From contig NZ_CP124614.1 of the NCBI RefSeq assembly GCF_029958905.1, positions 2,232,001-2,296,000 of the forward strand: a DNA stretch of 64,000 nt, written 5' to 3'. How positions within the stretch are numbered: position 1 is the first letter of the stretch; the number at the start of each line of letters is the position of its first letter. Of the stretch, positions 364-14,204 are shown in pieces. The notes under the pieces are model-generated. The model saw only the letters and a list, made by a program, of their open reading frames with translations, ran no database searches and had not been told where the DNA came from. The position numbers were made by a program, and so were the translations under genes. Origin of the DNA: Vibrio sp. YMD68. GTDB lineage: Bacteria; Pseudomonadota; Gammaproteobacteria; Enterobacterales; Vibrionaceae.

Positions 364-510
364 TTATTTGATCGAATTAAGAAACAATACTGTTCAATTT
401 GGTGTGTTTTTCAGATCAAGTCAATGTTTTATGATGACGTCCGTTGAAACCAATAAACCATTTGTTCCAAAAACGCTTTTATTCCAACACACCAATCAAT
501 GGAAATCATA

Positions 511-1374
511 ATGAAAAAGATCACTTTCTTAGCCGCTTCTATCCTACTTACTGGCGGTGCTTTTGCTACCGAACAAACACCCCTCACATTTGATGTTTAT
601 AACGCTGATGGAAACAGCTTCCACGTCAATTCAACACTGATTGAAGGAGAAAACGAAGTCATGCTGATCGACACGGGATTTACTAAGGCAGATGCGCTTC
701 GTATTGCCGCTAAAGTGTTGGACACAGGCAAAGAGCTAAAAACAATTTTTATTAGCCAAGCCGACCCAGATTACTACTTTGGCGCTGAAACTCTTCACTC
801 GCTATTTCCAGACGCACAAATTATTACGACCCCTGCCGTAAAAACAGTGATTGAGAAAAAATTGCCTACAAAGCTGAAAGTATGGTCACCACGTATGGGG
901 AGTAATGCACCTGTAGAGCCTTATGTCCCTCATGCTATAACCGAGAATTTCCTTACTTTAGAAGGACACAAAATAGAAATCATGGGGACAAACGGAGTGC
1001 TAGCTCATCGCCCCTATTTGTGGGTACCTTCGAGTAAAGCGCTACTGGGCAACGTAGCGGTATATGGCAATCTGCACCTTTGGACCGCAGATTCGCAAAC
1101 GGAACAAAGCCAGCGAGCATGGAGTGAGCAGCTTAAAGAGATGCAAGAACTTCAGCCTGAGTTAGTTATCCCTGGACATATGAAATCGGGTACAGCTTTA
1201 AACGCAGAAACAATCCGTTATTCTCAGCAGTACCTTAAAGACTTCAGCCAAGCAAAAGCGACCAGTGAAAACAGTGAACAGTTAATAGAAGCGTTATCTC
1301 AACAATATGGTGATGCTGAATCTATGAATTTAATGATTGGCGCTAAAGTTCACATGGGAGAGATGACATGGTAA
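511..1374 (+). CDS. Exported metallo-beta-lactamase-fold protein with substituted metal ligands
   Basis: A 287-residue protein starting with a signal peptide (MKKITFLAASILLTGGAFA, cleavage near residue 19), so it should act in the periplasm. An in-frame ATG 12 bases upstream would add MEII before the signal; I prefer 511 because it gives a clean signal peptide. The fold is recognisable from LIDTGF (residues 52-57), the strand before the HxHxDH position, and a late PGHM (221-224). The HxHxDH motif reads QADPDY (83-88): both first histidines and the last are replaced, and the usual second-shell Asp is Asn181. It may be non-hydrolytic or bind metal differently. It overlaps the next gene by 7 bases (ATGGTAA), implying translational coupling. 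Confidence 0.75.
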   Translation: MKKITFLAASILLTGGAFATEQTPLTFDVYNADGNSFHVNSTLIEGENEVMLIDTGFTKADALRIAAKVLDTGKELKTIFISQADPDYYFGAETLHSLFPDAQIITTPAVKTVIEKKLPTKLKVWSPRMGSNAPVEPYVPHAITENFLTLEGHKIEIMGTNGVLAHRPYLWVPSSKALLGNVAVYGNLHLWTADSQTEQSQRAWSEQLKEMQELQPELVIPGHMKSGTALNAETIRYSQQYLKDFSQAKATSENSEQLIEALSQQYGDAESMNLMIGAKVHMGEMTW

Positions 1375-1988
1375 CCATTCATTACTTTTATGACCCAATG
1401 TGCGGTTGGTGTTATGGCGCAACCACTCTCATTGAAACAATCACCAAAAGTCAGAAGTTCATGTTGAAATTACACCCAGGTGGAATGGTGCCCAACCGCG
1501 CAATTGAACCTAATTTCCGTAAGCATATTTTGAAAAGTGACCTATCAATCAGTGAGCAAACAGGCGCAAAATTTGGGCAACCTTATCGGGAACGCGTAAC
1601 CAGCCCTAATGAGTTTGTTTTGGATTCTTACCTTTCCATTCGAGCGATTCTTGTCGCTGAATCTTTGGGAATGGACCCGTTTCTAATGCTAAAAGCGATA
1701 CAAAAAGCGCATTATGTCGATGGAAAACAGGTCAATAAGCGAGCGACATTAGAGGAGATAGCCACCCAATTAGGGCTAGACCGAAAATTATGGTCTGAAA
1801 GAATGCTCGCAGGGGGAAATTGGGAAGTAAACGCAGTCGAAAACACTCACCAGCTGATGGCTCGCTTACAGGTACAAGGTTACCCGACACTGTTTCTCGA
1901 AGAAAATGACCAGTTTACTCGGTTGCCGCATTCAAAATATTACGGTCAAGGTCAGAAATGGCAAGCGTTCTTGGAAGACTTAGCCTAG
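1368..1988 (+). CDS. DsbA/FrnE-like thioredoxin-fold protein
   Basis: A 206-residue protein without a signal peptide, so probably cytoplasmic. It opens with a thioredoxin-fold strand followed by a CGWC active site (residues 12-15), has a long helical insertion with the DsbA-family GGMVPNRAIEPNFR segment, and a cis-proline motif GYPT near residue 173. This resembles FrnE-type DsbA-family oxidoreductases. The start ATG lies inside the stop region of the upstream metallo-beta-lactamase-fold gene, so the two are co-translated. A role in thiol stress or adduct removal is a guess; the substrate is unknown. A bidirectional hairpin terminator follows. Confidence 0.8.
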   Translation: MVTIHYFYDPMCGWCYGATTLIETITKSQKFMLKLHPGGMVPNRAIEPNFRKHILKSDLSISEQTGAKFGQPYRERVTSPNEFVLDSYLSIRAILVAESLGMDPFLMLKAIQKAHYVDGKQVNKRATLEEIATQLGLDRKLWSERMLAGGNWEVNAVENTHQLMARLQVQGYPTLFLEENDQFTRLPHSKYYGQGQKWQAFLEDLA

Positions 1989-2178: not shown

Positions 2179-2982
2179 CTAGATCAATTTGTTTCGAATG
2201 TGTATGACCACGGCTTCTGCAATAATGACCACCACAAAAATACTCACCAGCACCATCGATACTTTCTGCCATTCAAACAAGTTTTGTGCGTCATTAAGCA
2301 CCACACCAATACCACCAGCGCCAACCAACCCTAATACGGCAGACTCTCGGACATTGATGTCCCAACGGAACAACACAATAGAGTAAAAAGCAGGCATAAC
2401 TTGAGGCCAATACCCTTTCAATATGACACTCATCCACGAGGCGCCAGTAGCACGGAGCGCTTCAATTGGGCCCATATTGACTTCGGCAAGTGCTTCCCCT
2501 AACAGCTTCCCTACAAACCCTATACTACGAATGGCAATCGCCATCACACCAGCAAGAACACCAGGGCCAAACAATGCGATAAACAACAAAGCCCAAACCA
2601 GTGAATTGACCGAACGGGAAGCCACAAGGAAAAACTGAGCGACCCAATTTAGCACTTTATTTTGTGTAATGTTTGGCGCATTAAGTAATGCCAAAGGAAT
2701 CGCAAATATCAGGGTAAACAGCGTCCCCAATGTGGCAATATTGAGCGTCTCAATCATCGCAGCGTGAATCGATTCAGGATAAAAAGCATAGTCCAATGGA
2801 ACCATTCTCTGAAACATGTCAGCAAACTGCGCAGGCGCGTCATACAAGAACTCAGGAATCACTTCCACGGTCTGCCACGACCACACAATCGCACAGACTA
2901 AGCTTAAGTAAATAGCAAATCGGGCAATACGCTCATTTGGCGTGAAGCGTTGCCACTCTTTATCGATAGAGGCGGTTGTCAT
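2179..2982 (-). CDS. phnE: PhnE-type ABC transporter permease (second copy)
   Basis: A 267-residue inner-membrane permease with about six hydrophobic segments and the binding-protein-dependent permease loop around EALRATGASWMSVILKGYWP (about residues 174-193), the site that docks on the ATPase. It pairs with the adjacent PhnE1 to form a heterodimeric channel for a phosphonate, phosphite or phosphate-ester substrate. Its ATG overlaps the stop of the preceding permease by one base (TAATG). It is the last gene of phnD-phnC-phnE1-phnE2 and ends before a bidirectional terminator. Substrate specificity cannot be read from the permease. Confidence 0.9.
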   Translation of the reverse strand: MTTASIDKEWQRFTPNERIARFAIYLSLVCAIVWSWQTVEVIPEFLYDAPAQFADMFQRMVPLDYAFYPESIHAAMIETLNIATLGTLFTLIFAIPLALLNAPNITQNKVLNWVAQFFLVASRSVNSLVWALLFIALFGPGVLAGVMAIAIRSIGFVGKLLGEALAEVNMGPIEALRATGASWMSVILKGYWPQVMPAFYSIVLFRWDINVRESAVLGLVGAGGIGVVLNDAQNLFEWQKVSMVLVSIFVVVIIAEAVVIHIRNKLI

Positions 2983-3809
2983 TAAAACACTCTCCTAACA
3001 ATATTAGAAAGAAACTCACCGACTAAAATCAATGCGATGATAGTGATCAAAATAGCGGCCACAAAATCGTAGTCAAAACGTTGGAAAGCAGAGAACAGCG
3101 TCCCTCCCAACCCTCCGGCTCCGACAATACCGACCATCGTTGAGTTACGTAAATTGGAATCTAACTGGTAACTTGCAAAGCCAATAAAGCGTGAAAATAC
3201 TTGAGGCATAACCGCATACAAAATGACACTGGCGAAGCTCGCACCCGTCGCTCTAATCGCCTCTACTGGCTTAAACGAAATCTCTTCAATGGACTCCGCA
3301 AACAGCTTGGCAATAAAGCCAATCGACGCAAACACTAAGGTAAGAATGCCCGCTAAAGCACCAAAACCCACCGCTTTAACAAACAAGATTGCGATGATCA
3401 CCGGATGGAAAGAACGGCATAAAGCAATAAAGCCACGCACAGGCGTTGAAACGAGAGAAGGCATCATATTTCGAGCCGCGAGTAACCCCAAAAACAGTGA
3501 AATGAGGATCCCAAAGAAGCTCGAAATAATAGCGATTTGCAGACTTTCAGCGAGACCGCTCAGTAATAAACTCGAACGAGAGAAATCAGGTGGAAACATA
3601 CGCGATAAAAGTCGTTCACTTTCACCAAAACCTATGATCAAACGGTCAACGGTTAAACCAAGCATCGATACGCTATAAAATAGGTAGCCTACAACCGCCG
3701 CGATAATGGCACGATTAAGCCAAGACACCTTGAACGGATTTTTACGATCAATAGAAGTGCCGTTTGAGGAAGGCCCGCTTGTCAAAGGACTTGGGGTTAA
3801 TTCAGCCAT
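2982..3809 (-). CDS. phnE: PhnE-type ABC transporter permease (first copy)
   Basis: A 275-residue permease with a proline- and serine-rich cytoplasmic N-terminus (about 30 residues), then several transmembrane helices. The EAA-type loop is [20 protein letters not shown], and the family signature [12 protein letters not shown] follows near the C-terminus. It partners with PhnE2 and the ATPase PhnC. It overlaps the phnC end by 13 bases and the next permease by one base, so the four genes look translationally linked. Two PhnE copies are common in PhnCDE-type importers. Confidence 0.9.
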
Positions 3810-4567
3810 GACTCGCCCCCGTAAATGATCTTCAGATCGTCTTCTGAAATACCCTCAGGGCTACCATCGTAATGAACCTTGCCATTACACATACCGATGA
3901 TGCGCTTTGCGTAACGTTTTGCCAAATTCACATCATGGATGTTCACCAACACTGGAATGTTTTTCTTCTCTGCGAACGTCTCCATTAGCTCCATAATCTC
4001 AACCGCAGTTTTAGGATCAAGTGACGATGTCGGTTCATCGGCCAACAGAATATAAGGGTCTTGCATGACGGCACGCGCGATACCAACACGTTGTCTCTGA
4101 CCGCCCGACAAGCTGTCGGCACGTTGGTTAGCAAAGTCTTGTAAGCCAACAAATTCAAGCAATTCAAAGGCTTTTTCGAGGTCTTTTCCCGAGTAATTAC
4201 GACGCCATGCATTCCATGCCGTCATGTAGCCTAAGCGCCCGCTTAACACGTTTTCAAGTACCGTTAGGCGCTCTACTAAGTTGTACTCCTGGAACACCAT
4301 TCCGATATGACGACGCTCCTTGCGAAGCGCTTGTCCTTTAAGTTGCGTGAGATCCGTACCATCAAATATGATTTCACCTTGGCTAGGATCATTAAGGCGA
4401 TTGATACAACGTAAAAGCGTACTTTTCCCCGTTCCTGAAGGCCCAATAATCGCAATAATTCCTGGTTCTTTAACATCAATGTTGATGCCTTTAAGGATTG
4501 GCTTTCCTGCCACATATTCATGATAAAGATTGTTGATCTTTATTCCGTCACAGCTTACTTCGGCCAT
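3797..4567 (-). CDS. phnC: PhnC-type ABC transporter ATP-binding protein
   Basis: A 256-residue ATPase with Walker [10 protein letters not shown] (residues 42-50), Q-loop VFQEYNL, signature [14 protein letters not shown], Walker [13 protein letters not shown] and H-loop NIHD. The length and the [18 protein letters not shown] region are typical of PhnC of phosphonate importers. It energises the two PhnE permeases. A 91-base gap with a strong hairpin separates it from phnD, so it probably depends on transcription through phnD, with the hairpin stabilising or limiting the messages on either side. Confidence 0.92.
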
Positions 4568-4599
4568 ACTGCATTTCCTTGTACAAATATTAAGATGAA

Positions 4600-4624
4600 C
4601 TATGCCCTACCGGTTAGGGCATAG
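4600..4624 (-). other. Intercistronic hairpin between phnD and phnC
   Basis: The perfect 10-bp inverted repeat CTATGCCCTA / TAGGGCATAG with a 5-base loop lies in the only sizeable gap of the operon. No U tract follows on the minus strand, so it is more likely a processing or stability element that keeps the binding-protein message abundant than a full terminator. That is inference from similar hairpins in other importer operons. Confidence 0.6.
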
Positions 4625-4658
4625 ATTTTTAGAGTGTTGGATTAGGTCGAGACGAGAA

Positions 4659-5699
4659 CTACTGGCTATTTGCTTGTTTTGCTAACTCTGCCGCTTTTTT
4701 CTTGGCACGTTTAGCCGCATCTTTTTCAGCCAGCTTTTTCAATCCTGCTTTGGTATAAGCCGTACCCGTTGCATGAGCGATATCGCGAATCACACCCCAT
4801 TCTTCTTGGTAAGAAATCGGTGAGAAGCGATCCGCACCTTTGAATGATGCTCTCATTTCAGGTGTGAAACGGTAGCTAAAGAAAGCTTCGTTAATTTTGT
4901 CTACCAATTCTGGTTTTAGGTTATGAGCGTAACCAAATGCCGAGGTAGGGAATCGTGGGCTGCGGTAGATGATCTTCAGTTCAGAGTCGTCGACACGACC
5001 TGCGGTTACCATACGATCGTACACATCAGATGCCACTGGTGCTGCATCATAGTCTCCATTGAAGACACCCAAAATTGATTGGTCGTGTTTACCAGAGTAA
5101 AGCACTTTGTAGTCTTCATCGGGTACTAGCCCTTCAGCAGGAAAGAGCGCGCGTGGTGCAAGGTTGCCAGAGTTGGAAGAGGCAGATGTGTGTGCAACCT
5201 TTTTACCTTTGAGATCAGCCATCGTATCGATGCCACTGTCTTTGCGTACAATAGTGATGAGGTTATAGCCTTGGAAACCCGACTCGTCACCTTTCACTGC
5301 AATAGGTACGTAACCCGCTAGGTTCACAGCATAACCCGTTGGACCTGTCGAGAAACCCGCAACGTGAAGACGACCAGAACGCATTGCTTCTACTTGTGCA
5401 GAATTAGAGTGAACAGTGTAATAAATCACTCGCTTGCCAGTAATCTTACTTAGGTGAGCTTGGAAATCTGCAAACGCGTCTTTGTACAATGCAGGGTCTT
5501 CAACTGGCGTGTAAGTAAACACCAGCGTACTTGGATCGTTCCACTCATCTGGATTCTTAGGTGAATCAGCCACAAGATCTTGGTTTTCGTCACAGTATCG
5601 ATCGTCTAACACACCACGGCTAGAGCAGTCGCTTGCCATAGCCAATGAAGGAAGTAGTAATGAGCTAGCGATTAACAGTCCTTTAACACTGATTTTCAT
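4659..5699 (-). CDS. phnD: PhnD-type periplasmic phosphonate/phosphate-ester-binding protein
   Basis: A 346-residue protein with a signal peptide (MKISVKGLLIASSLLLPSLAMA). The mature part matches PhnD: LVFTYTPVEDP near residue 59, RSGRLHVAGFSTGPTGYAVN in the middle, and the DLKGKKVAHTSASSNSGN ligand loop. An N-terminal cysteine-containing segment (SDCSSRGVLDDRYCDEN) and a lysine/alanine-rich C-terminal tail of about 20 residues are additions beyond the core domain. It is the first gene of the importer operon. A sigma-54 promoter lies 46-61 bases upstream of the ATG. Ligand could be a phosphonate, phosphite or small phosphate ester; the neighbouring phosphodiesterase hints at the last. Confidence 0.9.
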   Translation of the reverse strand: MKISVKGLLIASSLLLPSLAMASDCSSRGVLDDRYCDENQDLVADSPKNPDEWNDPSTLVFTYTPVEDPALYKDAFADFQAHLSKITGKRVIYYTVHSNSAQVEAMRSGRLHVAGFSTGPTGYAVNLAGYVPIAVKGDESGFQGYNLITIVRKDSGIDTMADLKGKKVAHTSASSNSGNLAPRALFPAEGLVPDEDYKVLYSGKHDQSILGVFNGDYDAAPVASDVYDRMVTAGRVDDSELKIIYRSPRFPTSAFGYAHNLKPELVDKINEAFFSYRFTPEMRASFKGADRFSPISYQEEWGVIRDIAHATGTAYTKAGLKKLAEKDAAKRAKKKAAELAKQANSQ

Positions 5700-5744
5700 A
5701 TTTAAACCTTATTTTTACTTATTGTTGAAAGTCACCATCGTTAT

Positions 5745-5760
5745 TGCAGAGTTTGTGCCA
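5745..5760 (-). promoter_or_regulatory. Sigma-54 promoter of phnD
   Basis: On the minus strand the sequence TGGCACAAACTCTGCA matches the consensus TGGCAC-N5-TTGCA with exact GG-N10-GC spacing (GG at 5759-5758, GC at 5747-5746). It lies 46 bases from the phnD start codon. A nearby sigma-54-dependent response regulator gene (7704-9059) supports it. Confidence 0.85.
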
Positions 5761-5823
5761 TATTTTTATTCCTTTATTTTCAACAATTTAACTAATGACA
5801 AAGAATATCAAAGAAACTTTGTG

Positions 5824-5869
5824 TCATTGCTGTCCAATTAAATGACCTTCATTTGGGTCATTATTGTCC
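5824..5869 (-). promoter_or_regulatory. Putative enhancer-binding sites upstream of phnD
   Basis: Two direct copies of a TCATTnnTGTCC motif occur at 5824-5835 (TCATTGCTGTCC) and 5858-5869 (TCATTATTGTCC). Between them AATGACC and GGTCATT (5841-5862) form an inverted repeat. The sites lie about 66 and 100 bp upstream of the sigma-54 -24 element. The same motif occurs at 7506-7517, upstream of the phosphodiesterase promoter. Binding by the 7704-9059 regulator is inferred. Confidence 0.6.
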
Positions 5870-5930
5870 TTAAAAGCCAGTCCTTAAAAACAAGTCCTTA
5901 AAAATAAGTCCTTAAAAATACAAGCTACAT
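5865..5930. repeat. Short direct repeats (AGTCCTTAAAAA)
   Basis: Four imperfect copies of a 13-14-base unit around GTCCTTAAAA follow one another. The first copy overlaps the distal TCATTATTGTCC site, so the array may contain degenerate half-sites or may be simple slippage. It occupies much of the intergenic space between phnD and the phosphodiesterase terminator. Confidence 0.7.
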
Positions 5931-5956
5931 AGATTCAAGCTCCTTAAGTTCAAAGG

Positions 5957-5982
5957 CAAAAAAAGAGCCCGAAGGCTCTTTG
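5957..5982 (-). terminator. Terminator of the phosphodiesterase gene
   Basis: On the minus strand AAAGAGCCT-TCG-GGCTCTTT is followed by a run of seven T. It isolates the glycerophosphodiester phosphodiesterase transcript from the phnD promoter region, so the two units need separate promoters. Confidence 0.88.
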
Positions 5983-6069
5983 GTTCACTGCTTTTTCTTT
6001 TTCTAAAAAATTTGTTTACTCGGCCACGAACTGAAATGCCTCTAAATAGCGACGGGCCTAATACATCCC

Positions 6070-7290
6070 CTAAGCCTCACTGTCCATGCAGTTAGCGTAG
6101 TAAGTTACGGTTGCTGGCCAATCACTGAACACCCCTAACACACCAACATCTTGTGCCAATACATCGAGCATTTTCATCATGTCGCCATCATTGTTAATCC
6201 CTTGCTTAACACTTTGGTAATACCAACCACCACCTTGTGCAAGCGAGCCTGAACGCTCTAGAGTCCATGCAATGATATCCAGATCAGCACCCTTCGCTAG
6301 CTTCGCGTAGTTAGATGCCACCAATTCATTGTTCTCATCGAGATCGACCAAAGCAAATAGAGGTGGTGCGATGATTTTCACACCCGCATCGTGCAGCTCT
6401 TTCATATTCTCTACAGAGGCAACAAAGTCAGCTTGCTCATAAACACGATCATCCAGATAAACGGCTTGTTTACCGAATTTAGGGTTTTCGTTGATCCAGT
6501 ACTTCACATCGTCAAGGTTGAATGATTGCAAGTAAGTATCAGAAGGCTCAAAACCTGCGTCTTTCAGTTCATCCACCAGCTTTTGTGCATACATCTCTTG
6601 AGTAAACCCGTTGAAAGGCATTTCAACATCCGCCGATTTAAGCTCAGGCGTCACTTTCACACCATACTCTTTAAATAACGCCGCACTTTCTGCATGAGTC
6701 ATTAATGTACCGCTTTGACTGTAAAGGTCAGTTCTCCAGCCGGGAGTTCCATTCATGTACTCTTCAACCGTTGTTGCTTTAGGATTTGCACCATCCATCT
6801 TCCCTTTCAGCGTCTTAAACTCAGCGAGAGTGAAATCAGAGGTGCGACATTCCGCTTTGGCATCTTCGCCAGTCACTGGGTTAGCCGGTGTAAATGGCGT
6901 CGAACACTTCTTCGCAAGGTCTGGATGAGCTAAGACATCCGTCGTTGTGTGCAAATCACTTTGCGAGTGACGACAGACCAAGGCTTTGTCTTTTGTGAAT
7001 GTTACATCACACTCCACGACGCCCGCACCCATTTGAATCGCCGCTAAGTACGATTCTTTCGTGTGCTCTGGAAACTGCATGGCCGCTCCGCGATGCCCAA
7101 TAGAAAAGTCGCTACGATGAAAAGGCCCTTCACTGCAACTCAGCAACTTCGTTTTCAAAGGGCTCTCGTCCATATTGTTGACTAAAAAGAGTGGACGAGG
7201 ACCTAAGTCTGCTGACTCTTGCGCAGCCCATGCCGTTATTGAACTCACGCCGAGTATCAGTGCAATAGAACCTTTCAGTATTTGCTTCAT
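6070..7290 (-). CDS. Periplasmic glycerophosphodiester phosphodiesterase
   Basis: A 406-residue protein with a signal peptide ([22 protein letters not shown]). The start at 7290 is chosen because AAGGAGAT lies 9 bases upstream; a longer reading from 7311 lacks this. The GDPD signature is present: [18 protein letters not shown] and [17 protein letters not shown] carry the catalytic His, Glu and Asp residues. GlpQ-type enzymes hydrolyse glycerophosphodiesters to glycerol-3-phosphate and an alcohol. At 406 residues it is longer than typical GlpQ, with an extra segment in the middle. It has its own sigma-54 promoter and sits between the importer and the two-component genes. Confidence 0.9.
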
Positions 7291-7312
7291 GTTTGTATCT
7301 CCTTGCAACAAG

Positions 7313-7327
7313 CAATTATTATTCTCA
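7313..7327. promoter_or_regulatory. Fur-box-like sequence in the phosphodiesterase leader
   Basis: Read on the minus strand, TGAGAATAATAATTG matches the TGATAAT-N-ATTATCA Fur pattern at 10 of 14 positions, with the left half nearly complete. It lies about 23 bases upstream of the start codon, downstream of the sigma-54 promoter. It may be chance in AT-rich DNA. Confidence 0.3.
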
Positions 7328-7424
7328 TTTCCTTATTCAGCCACTCGGTGCTGGATAACCGTCGCATACACTTTGGCTATACCCCGAAATGACCTCATGT
7401 GGACTCAAGCCACTGCGTAGGGAT

Positions 7425-7440
7425 TGCACGCATTGTGCCA
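7425..7440 (-). promoter_or_regulatory. Sigma-54 promoter of the phosphodiesterase gene
   Basis: On the minus strand TGGCACAATGCGTGCA gives TGGCAC-N5-GTGCA with exact GG-N10-GC spacing. It is 135 bases upstream of the ATG at 7290. It parallels the promoter of phnD. Confidence 0.82.
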
Positions 7441-7505
7441 AATACTAAAAGTCTTTTATTACAATAAGTTGAATATGTTCATTGTTCATGTGGTATTTAA
7501 ATGAG

Positions 7506-7517
7506 TCATTCTTGTCC
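7506..7517 (-). promoter_or_regulatory. Putative enhancer-binding site upstream of the phosphodiesterase
   Basis: TCATTCTTGTCC matches the TCATTnnTGTCC motif found twice upstream of phnD. It starts 66 bp upstream of the end of the -24 element (7440), the same distance as at phnD (5760 to 5824). Shared sequence and spacing suggest one activator for both promoters. Confidence 0.55.
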
Positions 7518-7590
7518 CTGTTAATCGCTGATTGAATGCTCAACCCATTTCGCCATACAAGTCACTTCGTTAACCATCATTCCGTTACCA

Positions 7591-7697
7591 GTCGTTCCAT
7601 TGTAAGTCGTTCCATTGCCCTCATTGAGATGACCCGTCATTAAGGAATCTTAGAAAACAATATTGGAAAACAATCATTGGAAAACAATCTTAGAAAA
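7591..7697. repeat. Short direct repeats downstream of the sigma-54 regulator gene
   Basis: GTCGTTCCATTG occurs twice (from about 7591), followed by three to four copies of a 13-14-base unit TTGGAAAACAAT (7648-7697). No gene lies here. The array separates the regulator stop from the phosphodiesterase promoter region. Confidence 0.65.
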
Positions 7698-7703
7698 AAT
7701 AGG

Positions 7704-9059
7704 CTATGACGTTTTAAAACTGTCTTTATCAAGTTGATGCTTTTTCATTTTCCGGTAAAGGGTTTTACGGGGCAGATTCAACTTGCTAGACACTTCGTTA
7801 ATATTGCCTGAGGTTTCAATTAACGCTTCCATCAAGACGTTTCTTTCGTAATGTTCCATCTGCTTTTCAAACGCAAAATCTTCCCCCGACGCTTCGCAAA
7901 TGGGTGACTGCAAATCAAAACCATCCCCCACAATGCCTAAAACAAATCGCTCAGCCACGTTCCTTAATTCGCGAACATTCCCCGGCCATTCGTGCCGACA
8001 TAACTGCTGAATTTGTTCGGGATAAATCGTCGACGGACGTGTTTTGTACTTTTGACTGGCTTGAATCACAAAGTGTCGAAAGAGTACCTGAATATCTTCT
8101 TTTCTATGGCGAAGTGCTGGTAAGTTTAAGCTCGCAATATTAAGGCGATAGAAGAGATCTGAACGAAAACCACCGGATTCACTTAAGCTCGCTAAATCCG
8201 TTTTGCTCGCAGCGACAACGACGATATCGACGGAAATCAGTTCATTCCCACCCACACGCTCAATCATGCGCTCTTGTATCACACGCAGTAATTTGATTTG
8301 TACCGCCATTGGCATGCTTTCTATTTCATCAAGAAACAGTGTCCCACCATTGGCTTGTTCAATTTTTCCGATTCGTTTCTTGTTCGCGCTGGTAAACGAA
8401 CCCGCTTCATGACCGAACAGCTCGCTTTCAATAATGCTTTCCGTCATACCCCCACAGTTAATCGCCACAAATGGCTTAGATTTACGGCGACTGAACTGGT
8501 GTAAAGCCCGCGCAATGACTTCTTTCCCTGTTCCTGTTTCACCATTTATAATGGTATCAACTCCGGTACGAGACAAGGCCAACACTTGCTTGCGAATGTT
8601 ATCTATTTCTTTTGATTGACCAATCACAACCGATTCAATTGGCCATTCGACCACTTCACCATCATCGCGCGTTTTCGGTCGATTTTGCTGGCTTTGAATC
8701 AATGCCAGATCGAGCTTTTCGACAAGCTCCCCTGGGTTCAATGGTTTTTCTAAAAAATCAAATGCCCCTGATTTCATCGCTTCTATCGCCATCGGAATAT
8801 CGCCATGCCCACTCATTAGCAGCACTGGAACATTCGGTGCGCGGTTTTGAATGGAACTCAATAACGTTAATCCATCCACTTTTGGCATTCGTACGTCACA
8901 CAACACCACCGATTGGCAATTCGCATTCAGTGATTTGAGGCCGACATTTGGGTCCGTGAACGGTGTCACGCTAAAGCCTTCAAGCTCCAGCATTTCACTC
9001 ATGGCTTCGATTACGTCTATTTCATCATCAATGAGGACTATGTGTTTTTGGGGAGTCAT
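7704..9059 (-). CDS. PgtA/DctD-like sigma-54-dependent response regulator
   Basis: A 451-residue transcription activator with receiver domain (phosphoacceptor Asp55 in VLCDVRMPK), AAA+ domain with Walker A GETGTGKE (173-180) and Walker B GGTLFLDE (238-245), and a C-terminal Fis-type helix-turn-helix (NINEVSSKLNLPRKTLYRKM). The sigma-54-contacting loop normally reading GAFTGA is GSFTSA (220-225). Phe and Thr are kept, but two small residues are changed. It overlaps the sensor kinase gene by 4 bases. The likely targets are the two sigma-54 promoters at 5745 and 7425. Closest known arrangement is PgtA of phosphoglycerate uptake, or DctD. Confidence 0.92.
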   Translation of the reverse strand: MTPQKHIVLIDDEIDVIEAMSEMLELEGFSVTPFTDPNVGLKSLNANCQSVVLCDVRMPKVDGLTLLSSIQNRAPNVPVLLMSGHGDIPMAIEAMKSGAFDFLEKPLNPGELVEKLDLALIQSQQNRPKTRDDGEVVEWPIESVVIGQSKEIDNIRKQVLALSRTGVDTIINGETGTGKEVIARALHQFSRRKSKPFVAINCGGMTESIIESELFGHEAGSFTSANKKRIGKIEQANGGTLFLDEIESMPMAVQIKLLRVIQERMIERVGGNELISVDIVVVAASKTDLASLSESGGFRSDLFYRLNIASLNLPALRHRKEDIQVLFRHFVIQASQKYKTRPSTIYPEQIQQLCRHEWPGNVRELRNVAERFVLGIVGDGFDLQSPICEASGEDFAFEKQMEHYERNVLMEALIETSGNINEVSSKLNLPRKTLYRKMKKHQLDKDSFKTS

Positions 9060-11032
9060 AAGTGCGTGCCTTTTGGAAGGGTGACGATAAATTCTGAACC
9101 TTGGTACTCAATCGATTCAACACGAATCGAACCGCCAAAATCTTTGATTATGTTGTATGCAATAGACAAACCTAGCCCAAGCCCTTTGTTTGTGGTTTTG
9201 CGGGTATAAAAGGGGTCAAACAAAAAAGGCAGTTCGTCTGTGGGGATACCTAGCCCATTATCACTCACTGAAATTTCAACCGTCGTTGAGAACGCTTTAA
9301 CTGATATTTCAAGGCGAGGGTGATCACAGTGCTCCACGGCATCTAACGCATTACTGATGAGGTTCACTAATACTTGCTCTAGTCGAATGCGATTCGCTCG
9401 AACGTTAAGTTCTGTTTGTTTCTGGTAATCAATCGACAAGGTATTTTGTCGAGTTTCAAACAGCTCTATTGCATCCTCAATGACACTCGACAACGCCACA
9501 TTTTCTATTTTTCCATCGCTTTTGCGCGCGAACGCTTTTAAATGGCTGGTAATCGCCGCAATTTTTTCGAGCAACCGTTCAATTTTATGCAAATTGGCTA
9601 CGGCCTTATCTGACCGTTCTCTCTCTAACCATAACTGAGCACTGCGAACGTGGCTATTGACGGCTGTCAGCGGCTGATTAATCTCATGAGTAATACCGAC
9701 ACTGAGTTGACCTAACGCCGCCAGCTTACCCGCTTGGATCAATTCGTCTTGTGTCACTCGCAATTTAGCTTCAGCGATGGTTCGCTCTTCTACTTCGGCT
9801 TCTAACTTACGATTGGTTTGTTTAACTGCTTTGGCGGTTGTTTGGAAAACCTTTAGGTACTTCGCCATCTGAGTAACTTCATCTTTTCCGCGTATCGACA
9901 CTTCAGTATCCAGATGACCTGTCGAGATCGCGAACATGTTATCTTGCAGCTGCAATAAACGTTCTAAAATACTCTTACGAACATAAAACCATGAAATAGC
10001 CGCCGCCGCGAGCACACTAAATAAAGAAAGAAATAGTGAGAGCCGTTGATTTGATTGAAGTGACTGCTGTGCCTGTTGGATAGACTGGTCAATATTGCCA
10101 TTGACCTTGTTCGTATTGCGTTCAATCTGGACGGTCAACTGGTTAAGATGTTCACGACTATTTTGAAGGAAATATTGCTCTTGATAACGATGATCTAACG
10201 CTTTGTTTTTAAGCGCATACAAACGGCTAGTGCTCGAAGCCAGGTTGTAAATAATCGCTAACTGGCGATCGAGTTCTGGAAATTCACTTCTTAAATCACC
10301 ACTCACCCACAGTGTCCACCACTGTTCACCAATTTGCTCAAGACGATTGCTAGTGTAATCCAATTCATTGAAACTGGCGTCGTTATACAATTTCTCAACT
10401 AAGCCAAGTTGGTAATAAAGCAGTGATCTCAGCTGAATGTACTGGATCTTCTGTTTACTTTTGGCTGGCAAACGGTCAAGCGAATCACTTGCTTGCTGCA
10501 ATAAAGGATAAAAGCCCTCGAGCAAACCCCATAGCTCTCTGTTCAGCGCGTTTGATTCGAGTTCACTTTGATAGAGCAGGCTAAGACTGTTGTTAACTTG
10601 GGCGATAAGATCTTTAAAATAGGCGTGATAATCTGGGAAGTTCAGCATAATACTATCCATCACGAGAATAGCATCTTGTATTTCTTGCATCGCATGTTTA
10701 CGTTCTAAACTCGAATCCGCCTCGCTGAGTTGAGAGGAGGTGGTGATGATCACCCTCACCATATCATTAAGGCGAGACGCATGATCTAGGGCTGGAATCT
10801 CACTTTTTTTGAGTGTTATAAGCTGCTGATTCAATTCATTAAACGTCGATGATGAAAAAACAGAAAGAAAAATCGTGGTCATCGACAGTATCGCGAGCGC
10901 TAATACGAGGCGCAACTCTATCCCTTTCCAGCGAAACCATTTCTTAGCCGATACTGGGCGTGCAAATGCGCCGTGAATGCGTGTAATGCGTGGCTTGATT
11001 TTGTCTATGGCTTGATAAGCATCATTAATCAC
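9056..11032 (-). CDS. PgtB/DctB-like membrane sensor histidine kinase
   Basis: A 658-residue kinase. After about 44 cytoplasmic residues comes a transmembrane helix (about 44-63), a long helical periplasmic region to about 325, a second transmembrane helix (about 326-348), a HAMP linker, then a DctB-type kinase core. The H-box GITHEINQP places the phospho-His at 449. The N-box is VNLISNALDA, and DNGLGIP and GLGLGLSIA form the ATP lid. Length and the coiled-coil periplasmic sensor resemble PgtB more than the PDC-sensor DctB. It is cotranscribed with the regulator, upstream of it. The signal may be a periplasmic phosphate ester, by context. Confidence 0.9.
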   Translation of the reverse strand: MINDAYQAIDKIKPRITRIHGAFARPVSAKKWFRWKGIELRLVLALAILSMTTIFLSVFSSSTFNELNQQLITLKKSEIPALDHASRLNDMVRVIITTSSQLSEADSSLERKHAMQEIQDAILVMDSIMLNFPDYHAYFKDLIAQVNNSLSLLYQSELESNALNRELWGLLEGFYPLLQQASDSLDRLPAKSKQKIQYIQLRSLLYYQLGLVEKLYNDASFNELDYTSNRLEQIGEQWWTLWVSGDLRSEFPELDRQLAIIYNLASSTSRLYALKNKALDHRYQEQYFLQNSREHLNQLTVQIERNTNKVNGNIDQSIQQAQQSLQSNQRLSLFLSLFSVLAAAAISWFYVRKSILERLLQLQDNMFAISTGHLDTEVSIRGKDEVTQMAKYLKVFQTTAKAVKQTNRKLEAEVEERTIAEAKLRVTQDELIQAGKLAALGQLSVGITHEINQPLTAVNSHVRSAQLWLERERSDKAVANLHKIERLLEKIAAITSHLKAFARKSDGKIENVALSSVIEDAIELFETRQNTLSIDYQKQTELNVRANRIRLEQVLVNLISNALDAVEHCDHPRLEISVKAFSTTVEISVSDNGLGIPTDELPFLFDPFYTRKTTNKGLGLGLSIAYNIIKDFGGSIRVESIEYQGSEFIVTLPKGTHL

Positions 11033-11454
11033 AGAGAATATCCTCTCAATGCTTTTATTATTGTGTATTAAGCGAACGAGTTTAAGAACAGCAATGGCGT
11101 AGTTTCATCCATTTTCTTATTTCAATACATACACTTTTGTTACATTGATCGCACTCATCACATCTGAGATACAAATTACTTACAATTATCCCCTCAGGTT
11201 CAAACTTTACTTTTCCATTCAAGTTTCCCTAACAGAGATTTTCAGTCTTGCAGAGTCAATCGTCATGATTACCACCCTCTTTCTAGTCGATTTGTTGGTA
11301 TATCCAACGAGAATCGGGGCAAACGTCAATAACTTCAATCTCACCTTTTTCTGTCTCACATTGATGAATGAGCTTCAAATGACACGTATTTACATTGATA
11401 AATGTTAACAGCTAGTTGATTTCATGTGTCCATCATTACTATCAGGAAATAAAA
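11033..11454. other. Intergenic region without a recognisable gene
   Basis: This 422-base AT-rich stretch lies upstream of the sensor kinase (-) and the decayed binding-protein gene (+). An open frame of 87 codons at 11145-11408 has no signal peptide, domain or good ribosome site and looks accidental. No sigma-54 element or clear operator was seen. Confidence 0.5.
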
Positions 11455-11681
11455 ATGAAGTGGATATTCGTGGCATTCGTCAGTGTTTTTCTATGTTTAC
11501 TTACGCGAAAGATTGGAAACAAATTCGCTTTACTGTTGAAGGGGCTTACCCACCGTTTAGTTGGACAACACAAGACGGTAAATTGGAAGGGTTTGAGGTC
11601 GATTTTGCCAACGCCCTGTGTACAGAATTAGGTGTAAAGTGCCTCATCTCGAAGACAAAAAAACCGATGTTAAATTGCTAA
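11455..11681 (+). pseudogene. Truncated amino-acid ABC transporter binding protein remnant
   Basis: An ATG at 11455, behind AGGAAATAAAA, starts a hydrophobic signal-like segment (MKWIFVAFVSVFLCL). The homology then continues in the next frame: FTVEGAYPPFSW and GKLEGFEVDFANALCTELGVKC are the opening of a HisJ/ArgT-type solute-binding protein. A frameshift near 11495-11505 and truncation after about 75 residues leave less than a third of the usual 250 residues. The frame ends at TAG-less sequence running into a hairpin at 11662. No permease or ATPase genes remain nearby. Confidence 0.65.
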
Positions 11682-12144: not shown

Positions 12145-13464
12145 TTACTGTATGGCTTTGTCAGCCGAATCCTGACAAAGAGGGAAGGTCATTGTAAACA
12201 GAGCACCCTTGAGTGTTTTGCTTTGCCCAACCTCAATAGTGGCATCATGTTGTTCGCAGATTTTCTTGACGATAGATAGCCCTAACCCATGGCCACTTTT
12301 GGCTTTGTTACGAGCTTTGTCACCCACGTAAAAAGGGTCGAATAGGTGAGAGTGATGCTCTACAGCAATACCATCACCATCATCGTGAATCTTGATACGC
12401 AGCTCATGGTGATGCGCCGTCGCCTCTAATAGCACTTGAGTCCGCGCATATTTAAACGCGTTACGTACTAGGTTATCAAGTGCTCGGTTAAGTAACTTGG
12501 CATCGGCCTGTATTGATTTAGGTTGATCGGGCAACAATAAATGAATGTTGAGATCGGTTTCTTTGTTCCATCGGATAAGGGCTATATCGAGGAAGCTTCT
12601 TATCTCCACGGGTTCTTGAAGCGCGTCTAACTGACTACTATCGAGCTTGGCATAATATAAAAGCTCATCGACCATTTTTTCCATCTCTTCTGTATCTTCA
12701 ACGATACTATCAACGGTCATTTGTTGATCTTTAGTGAGCGGTGTGTCTTTTAACATTTCAGCTTGCCATTGAATGCGAAAGATCGGCGTACGCAATTCAT
12801 GCGCGACGGCATTAGTGAGTGATCGGTTACTTTCAATAAGACGATTGATTCTGTGGGCCATGAGGTTAAAGGATCGGTTGAGCGAACCAATAGCACGGTT
12901 GCTCGAGGTTTCTGCTCGTGAAGAGAGATCCCCTTCTGCAAAGCGCAGTGTGGCGGCTTCAAGTTTTTTGACTCTTCGGAAAATGATAAGGAGATGCCCT
13001 AGCCCATAGACGAGGAAACTGACTAGGAAGAACAACCAGATGAGATTTTCTTCTAGCTCCACTTTTTGTCTAACTGGCGCGTCGTAATTGATCACGTAGT
13101 GGTAAACATTGTCGCTTTCTGCCAAACGAAACCACAGTTCACGCTCCTCGTCGTGAAATATGGCACTGTCAGGACGAGCGGTGAAATAGTCTGTGACCAC
13201 CGTGGGGATTTCATCGTTATGTCCTAAAATAGTCAATGTCATCTTAGACGTATCAACAAACTGTCTCATCGCCTGATGCGCAGCATCAATACCTTGATGT
13301 TTAGCAATATTTTCAATTAGCTGCTGATGAGCGACGGCTTCATAGTCTTCTAGTACATAATCATAATCTGTCGTGAGCTGAAAAACGAAGACCTCATAAG
13401 CGACAATACTTGTCATGAAGCAAACCAGTAAGCCCAACAAGGATTCCAAATAAATACGTCGCAT
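12145..13464 (-). CDS. RstB-like sensor histidine kinase
   Basis: A 439-residue kinase with transmembrane helices at about 7-28 and 141-163 around a periplasmic domain of about 110 residues, then HAMP, H-box VAHELRTP, N-box NLVRNAFKYA, G1 DDGDGI and G2 GHGLGLSIV. It is an OmpR-partner type kinase. The short acidic periplasmic domain and the pairing with the upstream RstA-like regulator suggest RstAB-like signalling of envelope or ionic conditions, but the signal is not evident. It follows the regulator by 35 bases on the same strand. Confidence 0.85.
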   Translation of the reverse strand: MRRIYLESLLGLLVCFMTSIVAYEVFVFQLTTDYDYVLEDYEAVAHQQLIENIAKHQGIDAAHQAMRQFVDTSKMTLTILGHNDEIPTVVTDYFTARPDSAIFHDEERELWFRLAESDNVYHYVINYDAPVRQKVELEENLIWLFFLVSFLVYGLGHLLIIFRRVKKLEAATLRFAEGDLSSRAETSSNRAIGSLNRSFNLMAHRINRLIESNRSLTNAVAHELRTPIFRIQWQAEMLKDTPLTKDQQMTVDSIVEDTEEMEKMVDELLYYAKLDSSQLDALQEPVEIRSFLDIALIRWNKETDLNIHLLLPDQPKSIQADAKLLNRALDNLVRNAFKYARTQVLLEATAHHHELRIKIHDDGDGIAVEHHSHLFDPFYVGDKARNKAKSGHGLGLSIVKKICEQHDATIEVGQSKTLKGALFTMTFPLCQDSADKAIQ

Positions 13465-13499
13465 CGTTACTCTCTGTCATTACGCTCATTTTGAACGTG

Positions 13500-14204
13500 T
13501 TAGCGCCACGCGGTTGAAACAAACAGGTAACCTTTGCCGCGAATGGTCTGGATTTTTTCGGCTGGGGTTTTATCGTCGCCGAGCAATTTTCTTAATCGCA
13601 CGATCTTGTTATCGATGGTTCGGTCGATACCATCGTATTCAATACCGCGCAGTGTTTGCGTTAGGTAATCCCGAGATAGTGGTGCATCGGGGTGGTTCGC
13701 TAACAACCAAAGGAGGTCAAATTCACTATCTGTCAGTGCTAAAATGTTGCCTGCAAGCTCGCATTTTTTGTAGGTGTTTTTCAGTACAAGTTGATCAAAC
13801 TCCAGGTATTCTGAGTCGTCGACAAGCATGCTGTTGGACTCCTTACGGCGCAATAGCGAGCGTACTCTTGCCAGTAGAACTCTAGGTTTGATTGGCTTAG
13901 TGACATAGTCATCAGCGCCAGTTTCTAACCCCGCAACGTGGTCAAAATCATCATCGCTGGCGGTTAGCATTAAGATCTTACCTTTATAGAGAGCCCGCGT
14001 CTGTCGGCAGATTGTCAGCCCATCGGTTACAGGAAGCATTAAATCCAATAGCACGATATCAGGTTGTTGAGAGAGGATGGTGTGTGCAGCGTCATTGCCA
14101 TTATCTAACGTGGTGACATCGAAATCTTGCGTGACAAAATAGTCTTTCAGCATTTGCTGCAGTTTCAAATCGTCTTCAATGATGATCATTTTAGCTTTCG
14201 TCAT
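13500..14204 (-). CDS. RstA-like OmpR-family response regulator
   Basis: A 234-residue regulator: receiver domain with acidic pocket EDD (10-12), phosphoacceptor Asp54 (VLLDLMLP) and Lys in TKPIKPR, then a winged-helix DNA-binding domain with RGIEYDGIDRTIDNKIVRLR and GKGYLFV. The C-terminal recognition segment is very like RstA. It is the first gene of a two-gene operon with the downstream kinase. Confidence 0.87.
   Translation of the reverse strand: MTKAKMIIIEDDLKLQQMLKDYFVTQDFDVTTLDNGNDAAHTILSQQPDIVLLDLMLPVTDGLTICRQTRALYKGKILMLTASDDDFDHVAGLETGADDYVTKPIKPRVLLARVRSLLRRKESNSMLVDDSEYLEFDQLVLKNTYKKCELAGNILALTDSEFDLLWLLANHPDAPLSRDYLTQTLRGIEYDGIDRTIDNKIVRLRKLLGDDKTPAEKIQTIRGKGYLFVSTAWR

What the first reader, a model, noticed from the sequence alone, without database searches (positions are those of the whole stretch)
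2179..11032. A sigma-54-controlled organophosphate scavenging regulon (PhnCDEE importer, periplasmic phosphodiesterase, PgtAB-like sensing)
Seen: two promoters with exact GG-N10-GC spacing, one before phnD (5745-5760) and one before the phosphodiesterase (7425-7440), each its own unit because a terminator lies between them; and a sigma-54 response regulator with kinase next door. Known: PgtA/PgtB activate phosphoglycerate uptake, GlpQ-type enzymes release glycerol-3-phosphate, PhnD proteins bind phosphonates or phosphate analogues. Inferred: the set degrades glycerophosphodiesters outside the inner membrane and imports a product or phosphonate on sensing it. I know of no description of a PhnCDEE importer tied to this sigma-54 pair.
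Basis: partly seen in the sequence, partly recalled or inferred. Interest (0 to 1): 0.72.

Follow-up and report, generated by a model that had tools for sequence, protein, structure and literature searches.

The report
Sigma-54 regulon for glycerol-phosphate scavenging
A marine Vibrio carries a conserved gene set in which a sensor kinase and its sigma-54 activator appear to switch on just two units, an enzyme that would cut phospholipid remnants outside the inner membrane and an importer whose closest studied relative binds glycerol phosphate, so a cluster labelled 'phosphonate uptake' is probably a lipid-recycling system.

Summary
Observation confirmed: GG-N10-GC promoters lie before phnD (5745-5760) and the phosphodiesterase (7425-7440), with a terminator between and a kinase plus sigma-54 activator next door. 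Both promoters carry the same activator-type site, GACA-N4-TGACNCA, at fixed distances. Site plus promoter, sought in 148 same-genus genomes, gives 67 hits in the cluster and 3 elsewhere. Kinase orthologs occur in 34 of the 35 genomes with this phnD and in no other of the 148; the next match is 39% identical. In 75 of 75 named loci with 4.5 kb upstream, kinase and activator precede phnD.

Corrections: the regulators miss the PgtA/PgtB models by far; the kinase sensor folds like TorS. The 'PhnD' fails the PhnD model and is sister to GpxB, the glycerol-1/3-phosphate binder of 2025, keeping 8 of 9 ligand residues. The phosphodiesterase folds like GlpQ. Best reading: substrate-induced release and import of glycerol phosphate. 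Fixed Asp225/Ser253 leave another phosphomonoester possible. That the binding protein is also the kinase's co-sensor is untested. New variant of a known kind.

The parts
9056..11032 (-). sensor histidine kinase; periplasmic sensor region folds like TorS (helical bimodular)
7704..9059 (-). NtrC-family sigma-54 response regulator
   Evidence: receiver, sigma-54 AAA+ and Fis-type HTH domains; loop G[SA]FT[SGN]A in 72 of 75 orthologs, window GSFTSA
7502..7516 (-). activator-type site GACAAGAATGACTCA upstream of the phosphodiesterase
   Evidence: 76 bp before the promoter T; same pattern at -74 to -77 in 31 of 32 loci, -64 in one
7460..7471 (-). loose IHF-like AA-N4-TTG between site and promoter (phosphodiesterase)
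   Evidence: at -31 in 20 of 32 loci; the stricter YAA-N4-TTGAW in 0 of 32; IHF consensus recalled
7425..7440 (-). sigma-54 promoter TGGCACAATGCGTGCA
6070..7290 (-). periplasmic GDPD-family phosphodiesterase (GlpQ fold), signal peptide by inspection
5962..5981 (-). terminator between the two units
5854..5868 (-). activator-type site 1 upstream of phnD, GACAATAATGACCCA
   Evidence: at -108 in 34 of 34 loci
5820..5834 (-). activator-type site 2 upstream of phnD, GACAGCAATGACACA
   Evidence: at -74/-75 in 34 of 34 loci
5779..5790 (-). IHF-like TAA-N4-TTGAA between sites and promoter (phnD)
   Evidence: YAA-N4-TTGAW at -30 in 29 of 34 loci; IHF consensus recalled
5745..5760 (-). sigma-54 promoter TGGCACAAACTCTGCA
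4659..5699 (-). periplasmic binding protein, sister group of GpxB (glycerol-phosphate binder), annotated phnD
   Evidence: 9lf9 E 3e-79; 8 of 9 ligand residues identical; tree
4600..4624 (-). hairpin between phnD and phnC, probably favouring excess binding protein
   Evidence: the strongest 40-nt fold of the gap lies below the mean of 30 mononucleotide shuffles in 34 of 34 loci; the hairpin sequence differs between groups and in L046 another hairpin was strongest; role inferred
3797..4567 (-). ABC ATPase (PhnC family)
   Evidence: TIGR02315 319 bits against cut-off 266
2982..3809 (-). permease 1 (PhnE family)
   Evidence: TIGR01097 261 against 217
2179..2982 (-). permease 2 (PhnE family)
   Evidence: TIGR01097 280 against 217

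Best explanation
A substrate-induced, sigma-54-dependent regulon for scavenging glycerol phosphate from glycerophosphodiesters (phospholipid remnants). A TorS-type kinase senses the substrate in the periplasm (inferred) and phosphorylates the NtrC-type regulator (family knowledge). The regulator binds GACA-N4-TGACYCA (inferred from position and exclusive co-occurrence), DNA is bent at an IHF-like site (inferred), and sigma-54 polymerase starts phnDCEE and the phosphodiesterase (promoters shown as sequence, not as transcripts). The exported GlpQ-fold enzyme frees glycerol phosphate (fold shown, activity inferred); the GpxB-sister binding protein hands it to the PhnC/PhnE/PhnE importer (substrate inferred from ligand residues). 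Inside it feeds glycerol and phosphate metabolism, in some relatives perhaps through a phosphatase encoded close by (linkage shown, role inferred).
For: Regulon: the site-plus-promoter pattern over 148 genomes gives 67 hits in the cluster (2 in each of 33 genomes, 1 in G027, which lacks the phosphodiesterase), 3 elsewhere; reversed control pattern 2. Kinase orthologs (57-100% identical) in 34 genomes, all among the 35 with this phnD; the 35th, G117, is 79% complete. Kinase-regulator upstream of phnD in 75 of 75 named loci with 4.5 kb upstream. Phosphodiesterase in 39 of 80 named loci, including two (L138, L164) where it lies between phnD and phnC, a second, separate linkage. Substrate: nearest PDB chain GpxB, 270 bits against 91 for PtxB; Thr118, Gly119, Tyr145, Ser175, Asn176, Ser177, His205, Arg229 match GpxB's published contacts, Ser253 replaces Thr247, no aromatic cap as in PtxB. 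GlpQ fold. HAD-IIB phosphatase in the stretch held in 26 of 80 loci, 20 of them within 1.6 kb of the second phnE; histidine phosphatase right after the second phnE in 13 of 80.
Against: No expression or binding data exist. The protein lies outside the GpxB clade (support of its own clade only 0.78), and Asp225 (invariant in 15 diverse members) stands where E. coli PhnD has amine-binding Glu177 and GpxB has Ser. Eight genomes also hold a second relative of the GpxB type (the 7 of 23 such genes examined are 70-74% identical to GpxB), so the two may differ in substrate. The activator-type site was not found within 500 bp of phnD in 25 of 80 named loci, among them Nitrincola, Halomonas, Oceanospirillum, Zobellella and Budvicia. 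Six of 79 scored loci lack the strict promoter match. 41 of 80 named loci show no such phosphodiesterase in the stretch held. The strict IHF motif is absent from the phosphodiesterase upstream (0 of 32). The HAD gene is not near the cluster in the window's own genome.
Confidence: 0.68

Rival explanations
1. Same regulon, but the imported ligand is another phosphomonoester, for instance phosphoethanolamine, phosphocholine or a longer polyol phosphate, held by Asp225.
For: Asp225 and Ser253 are invariant in 15 diverse members and differ from GpxB; Asp225 is in the column of PhnD Glu177. A GpxB-type relative coexists in 8 genomes.
Against: Other glycerol-phosphate contacts including Arg229 and Thr118 are kept; a GlpQ-fold partner would be expected to free glycerol phosphate. 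The Glu177 column rests on a 27%-identity alignment.
Confidence: 0.25
2. A true phosphonate or phosphite importer under sigma-54 control, as the annotation says.
For: Pfam Phosphonate-bd, PhnC and PhnE models pass. PhnX over cut-off in 28 of 34 and PhnJ in 10 of 34 genomes with the system, so phosphonate use is possible in most of them.
Against: PhnD equivalog model not met (132 against 261); the genome's C-P lyase cluster has its own PhnD (327); PtxB-type Tyr cap absent; G060 and G089 have neither PhnJ nor PhnX over cut-off yet keep the system.
Confidence: 0.07
3. The kinase senses a small molecule directly, as the McpS-type chemoreceptor domains do, with no role for the binding protein in signalling (compatible with the best explanation; it rivals only the novel case).
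Against: TorS ranks first in both comparisons and Pfam's TorS domain hits 12 of 30 members; kinase and binding protein go together in every locus that could show it.
Confidence: 0.45

Closest known systems
GpxB importer (PNAS 2025, PMC12718374; abstract, sections 5 and 8 and passages read)
   Same: PhnT-family ABC importer; 8 of 9 ligand-contact residues
   Different: 45-46% identity, sister clade, Ser253/Asp225. The 7 Vibrio GpxB-type loci fetched show none of this kinase or regulator in the 12 kb taken
AioX-AioS-AioR (PMC5908839, passages read)
   Same: PhnD-fold periplasmic protein, kinase, and regulator acting at an RpoN promoter
   Different: There the binding protein only signals; here it belongs to an ABC importer. 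A signalling role here is untested
TorT-TorS-TorR (structures 3o1h-j; one passage of PMC5908839; otherwise recalled)
   Same: sensor-domain fold
   Different: regulator of another family (recalled); TorT structurally and phylogenetically distinct from AioX, the PhnD-fold sensor (PMC5908839 passage)
PgtA/PgtB (Salmonella; biology recalled)
   Same: kinase plus NtrC-type regulator
   Different: both curated models missed by a wide margin
E. coli GlpQ
   Same: fold; periplasmic location inferred
   Different: curated GlpQ model not met, 47 against 254 bits

Membership tests
GpxB | nine ligand-contact residues | tested here: inconclusive
   8 of 9 identical, Thr247 to Ser
GpxB | falls inside the GpxB clade | tested here: not met
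   sister clade in a 27-sequence tree; joint support 0.997, own clade 0.78, GpxB clade 0.94
GpxB | binds glycerol-1/3-phosphate | not testable with these tools
   needs protein
PhnD (phosphonate binding) | TIGR03431 equivalog cut-off | tested here: not met
   132 against 261
PhnD (phosphonate binding) | Glu177/Asp205 pair | tested here: not met
   columns hold Asp225 (acidic, as Glu177) and Ser253
PhnC/PhnE transporter subunits | TIGR02315, TIGR01097 cut-offs | tested here: met
   319/266; 280 and 261/217
PgtA/PgtB | NF047793, NF047794 cut-offs | tested here: not met
   314/650 and 227/1000
TorS-type sensor domain | fold | tested here: met
TorS-type sensor domain | Pfam PF21689 hit | tested here: inconclusive
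   12 of 30 members at E<=1, best 2.3e-8, window none
TorS-type sensor domain | docks a periplasmic binding protein | not testable with these tools
   no complex prediction offered
NtrC-family sigma-54 activator | receiver, AAA+, Fis HTH, sigma-54 loop | tested here: met
sigma-54 promoter | GG-N10-GC, conserved | tested here: met
GDPD / GlpQ | PF03009 and GlpQ fold | tested here: met
GDPD / GlpQ | GlpQ equivalog NF008354 cut-off | tested here: not met
   47 against 254
AioXSR-type three-component system | binding protein required for signalling | not testable with these tools
   needs deletion

The most novel reading that the evidence does not exclude
The importer's own PhnD-fold binding protein is also the ligand-loaded co-sensor of the TorS-type kinase, so one protein both feeds the transporter and switches on its sigma-54 regulon: an AioX/TorT-like three-component circuit built onto an ABC importer, old enough to be shared by Vibrionaceae, Moritella, Psychromonas, Oceanospirillales, Zobellella and Budvicia, with a ligand distinct from that of GpxB.
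Probability: 0.35. Interest if true: 0.68.

Novelty: new variant of a known kind. Interest (0 to 1): 0.5.

Why it matters
The binding protein's relatives are numerous (7,999 of the 8,000 candidates scored passed E 1e-20; that set was not split into subfamilies and will include GpxB and others) and, where named in the listing, are called phosphate/phosphite/phosphonate binders. Some may instead recycle glycerol phosphate from membrane lipids, a sizeable organic phosphorus pool in the sea. The module supplies a predicted regulator site, two promoters and a ligand list, so that both substrate and sensing route can be tested directly, and it offers a case where transport and sensing may share one binding protein.

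Tried and rejected
Pho-box control: no further conserved block besides activator sites, IHF-like site and promoter was seen in the aligned upstreams (the middle of its output was cut, so the check is partial); no formal Pho-box scan was run. Two other exact activator-site matches in the window's genome (L072, L073) have no sigma-54 promoter at the right place, and the reversed control also gave 2. Rate of evolution of the binding protein as a sign of an extra partner: uninformative, since the GpxB-type gene is equally conserved between the two genomes compared. Absence of phosphonate catabolism as an argument: weak, only 2 of 34 genomes lack both PhnJ and PhnX. HAD phosphatase as a fixed member: dropped, because in the window's genome its ortholog sits elsewhere, in a TRAP-transporter cluster. 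One search used a wrong spacer (N7 for N6), gave 1 stray hit in 148 genomes, and was repeated. My Walker-A expression matched nothing (0 of 75) because it was written wrongly; the window shows GETGTGKE. In one search the activator sites were located with a fixed pattern, so letter counts at its fixed positions are 100% by construction; the constancy of their distances is not. Papers: ten searches found no description of this kinase-regulator-importer set; only listings were seen except for PMC12718374 and PMC5908839; no supplementary file was opened (none allowed).

Full report
What is there. The window lies in a genome of 4.85 Mb in 3 contigs; the nearest named relative found is Vibrio genomosp. 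F10 (PhnD 99%, which may leave out the genome itself). On the - strand, in order of transcription: kinase, response regulator, phosphodiesterase, phnD, phnC, phnE, phnE.

The regulon. phnD at 86% identity or more is found in 35 of 148 same-genus genomes. Of these, 33 loci were fetched (the window's own was at hand; G117, a 79% complete assembly with phnD at a contig end, was not). In all 33 the genes lie together, except that the phosphodiesterase is absent in L044 and cut short in L058; L056 has about 1.8 kb inserted between phosphodiesterase and phnD. Searching the 148 genomes for site plus promoter gave 70 hits: 67 in this cluster, 3 elsewhere (G129, G117, G040); the reversed pattern gave 2. 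So in the 34 genomes with the full set the predicted regulon is these two units and nothing else, at this stringency and spacing. Kinase orthologs occur in 34 genomes, all with this phnD (G079 and second copies in G081 and G135 are 37-39% relatives).

Beyond Vibrio. Eighty named loci (the best 80 of 341 found) span Vibrio, Photobacterium, Enterovibrio, Grimontia, Moritella, Psychromonas, Alginatibacterium, Marinomonas, Nitrincola, Halomonas, Oceanospirillum, Zobellella, Budvicia and MAGs including one labelled Hyphomicrobiales. In 75 of 75 with at least 4.5 kb upstream, kinase and regulator precede phnD on the same strand; of the 5 others, 2 (L130, L160) also show them and 3 (L122, L144, L156) have too little upstream DNA. 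The promoter is found in 73 of 79 scored (L122 not scored; missing in L138, L144, L156, L161, L162, L163; looser forms appear in L138, L161-L163). The activator-type site lies within 500 bp of phnD in 55 of 80 and is not seen in 25, mostly the more distant ones. Relatedness was not corrected for in any of these counts.

The importer's ligand. The nearest solved structure is GpxB (9lf9, E 3e-79; PtxB follows at 91 bits). PMC12718374 (abstract, sections 5 and 8, passages) reports micromolar binding of glycerol-1- and glycerol-3-phosphate and names nine contact residues. Eight are identical here and Thr247 is Ser253. A tree puts this family beside GpxB, not in it (joint support 0.997; own clade 0.78). 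A second, GpxB-type gene, 47-51% identical to the window's, occurs in 23 of 148 genomes, 8 of which hold both; the 7 examined are 70-74% identical to 9lf9. Two positions are fixed differently in the window's family: Ser253, and Asp225 where E. coli PhnD has Glu177. The gene is not a phosphonate PhnD by its model (132 against 261), while the genome's C-P lyase cluster has one that passes.

Verdict. The parts are known kinds in a combination for which I found no description in ten searches of the held library, which lacks most subscription papers.

Noticed in passing
window 11424-11681: 85-aa start of a family-3 solute-binding protein (SBP_bac_3) that ends abruptly, probably a gene remnant.
   Followed up: no
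window 12145-14204: A second two-component pair of the HisKA/OmpR type right behind the remnant; apparently unrelated.
   Followed up: no
window 499-1988: MBL-fold hydrolase near the Vmh model (266 bits, cut-off 430) followed by a DsbA-like protein.
   Followed up: no
L208 6055-11546 (G000:C1): UgpQ-like phosphodiesterase and DeoR/GlpR-like regulator divergent from a TRAP transporter that ends in the ortholog of the HAD phosphatase found beside the phn cluster in other vibrios: a second possible glycerophosphodiester route (UgpQ and GlpR models below their cut-offs).
   Followed up: partly
L138, L164, L129, L131, L132, L134, L141, L148, L153, L156, L160-L162: Histidine phosphatase directly after the second phnE.
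   Followed up: partly
L065-L071: Chromosome-1 GpxB-type genes in vibrios, with PhnC/PhnE-type genes but without this kinase/regulator in the 12 kb taken.
   Followed up: partly
L209 (G000:C2:1763000-1780000): C-P lyase region of the same genome with its own true PhnD and PhnC.
   Followed up: partly
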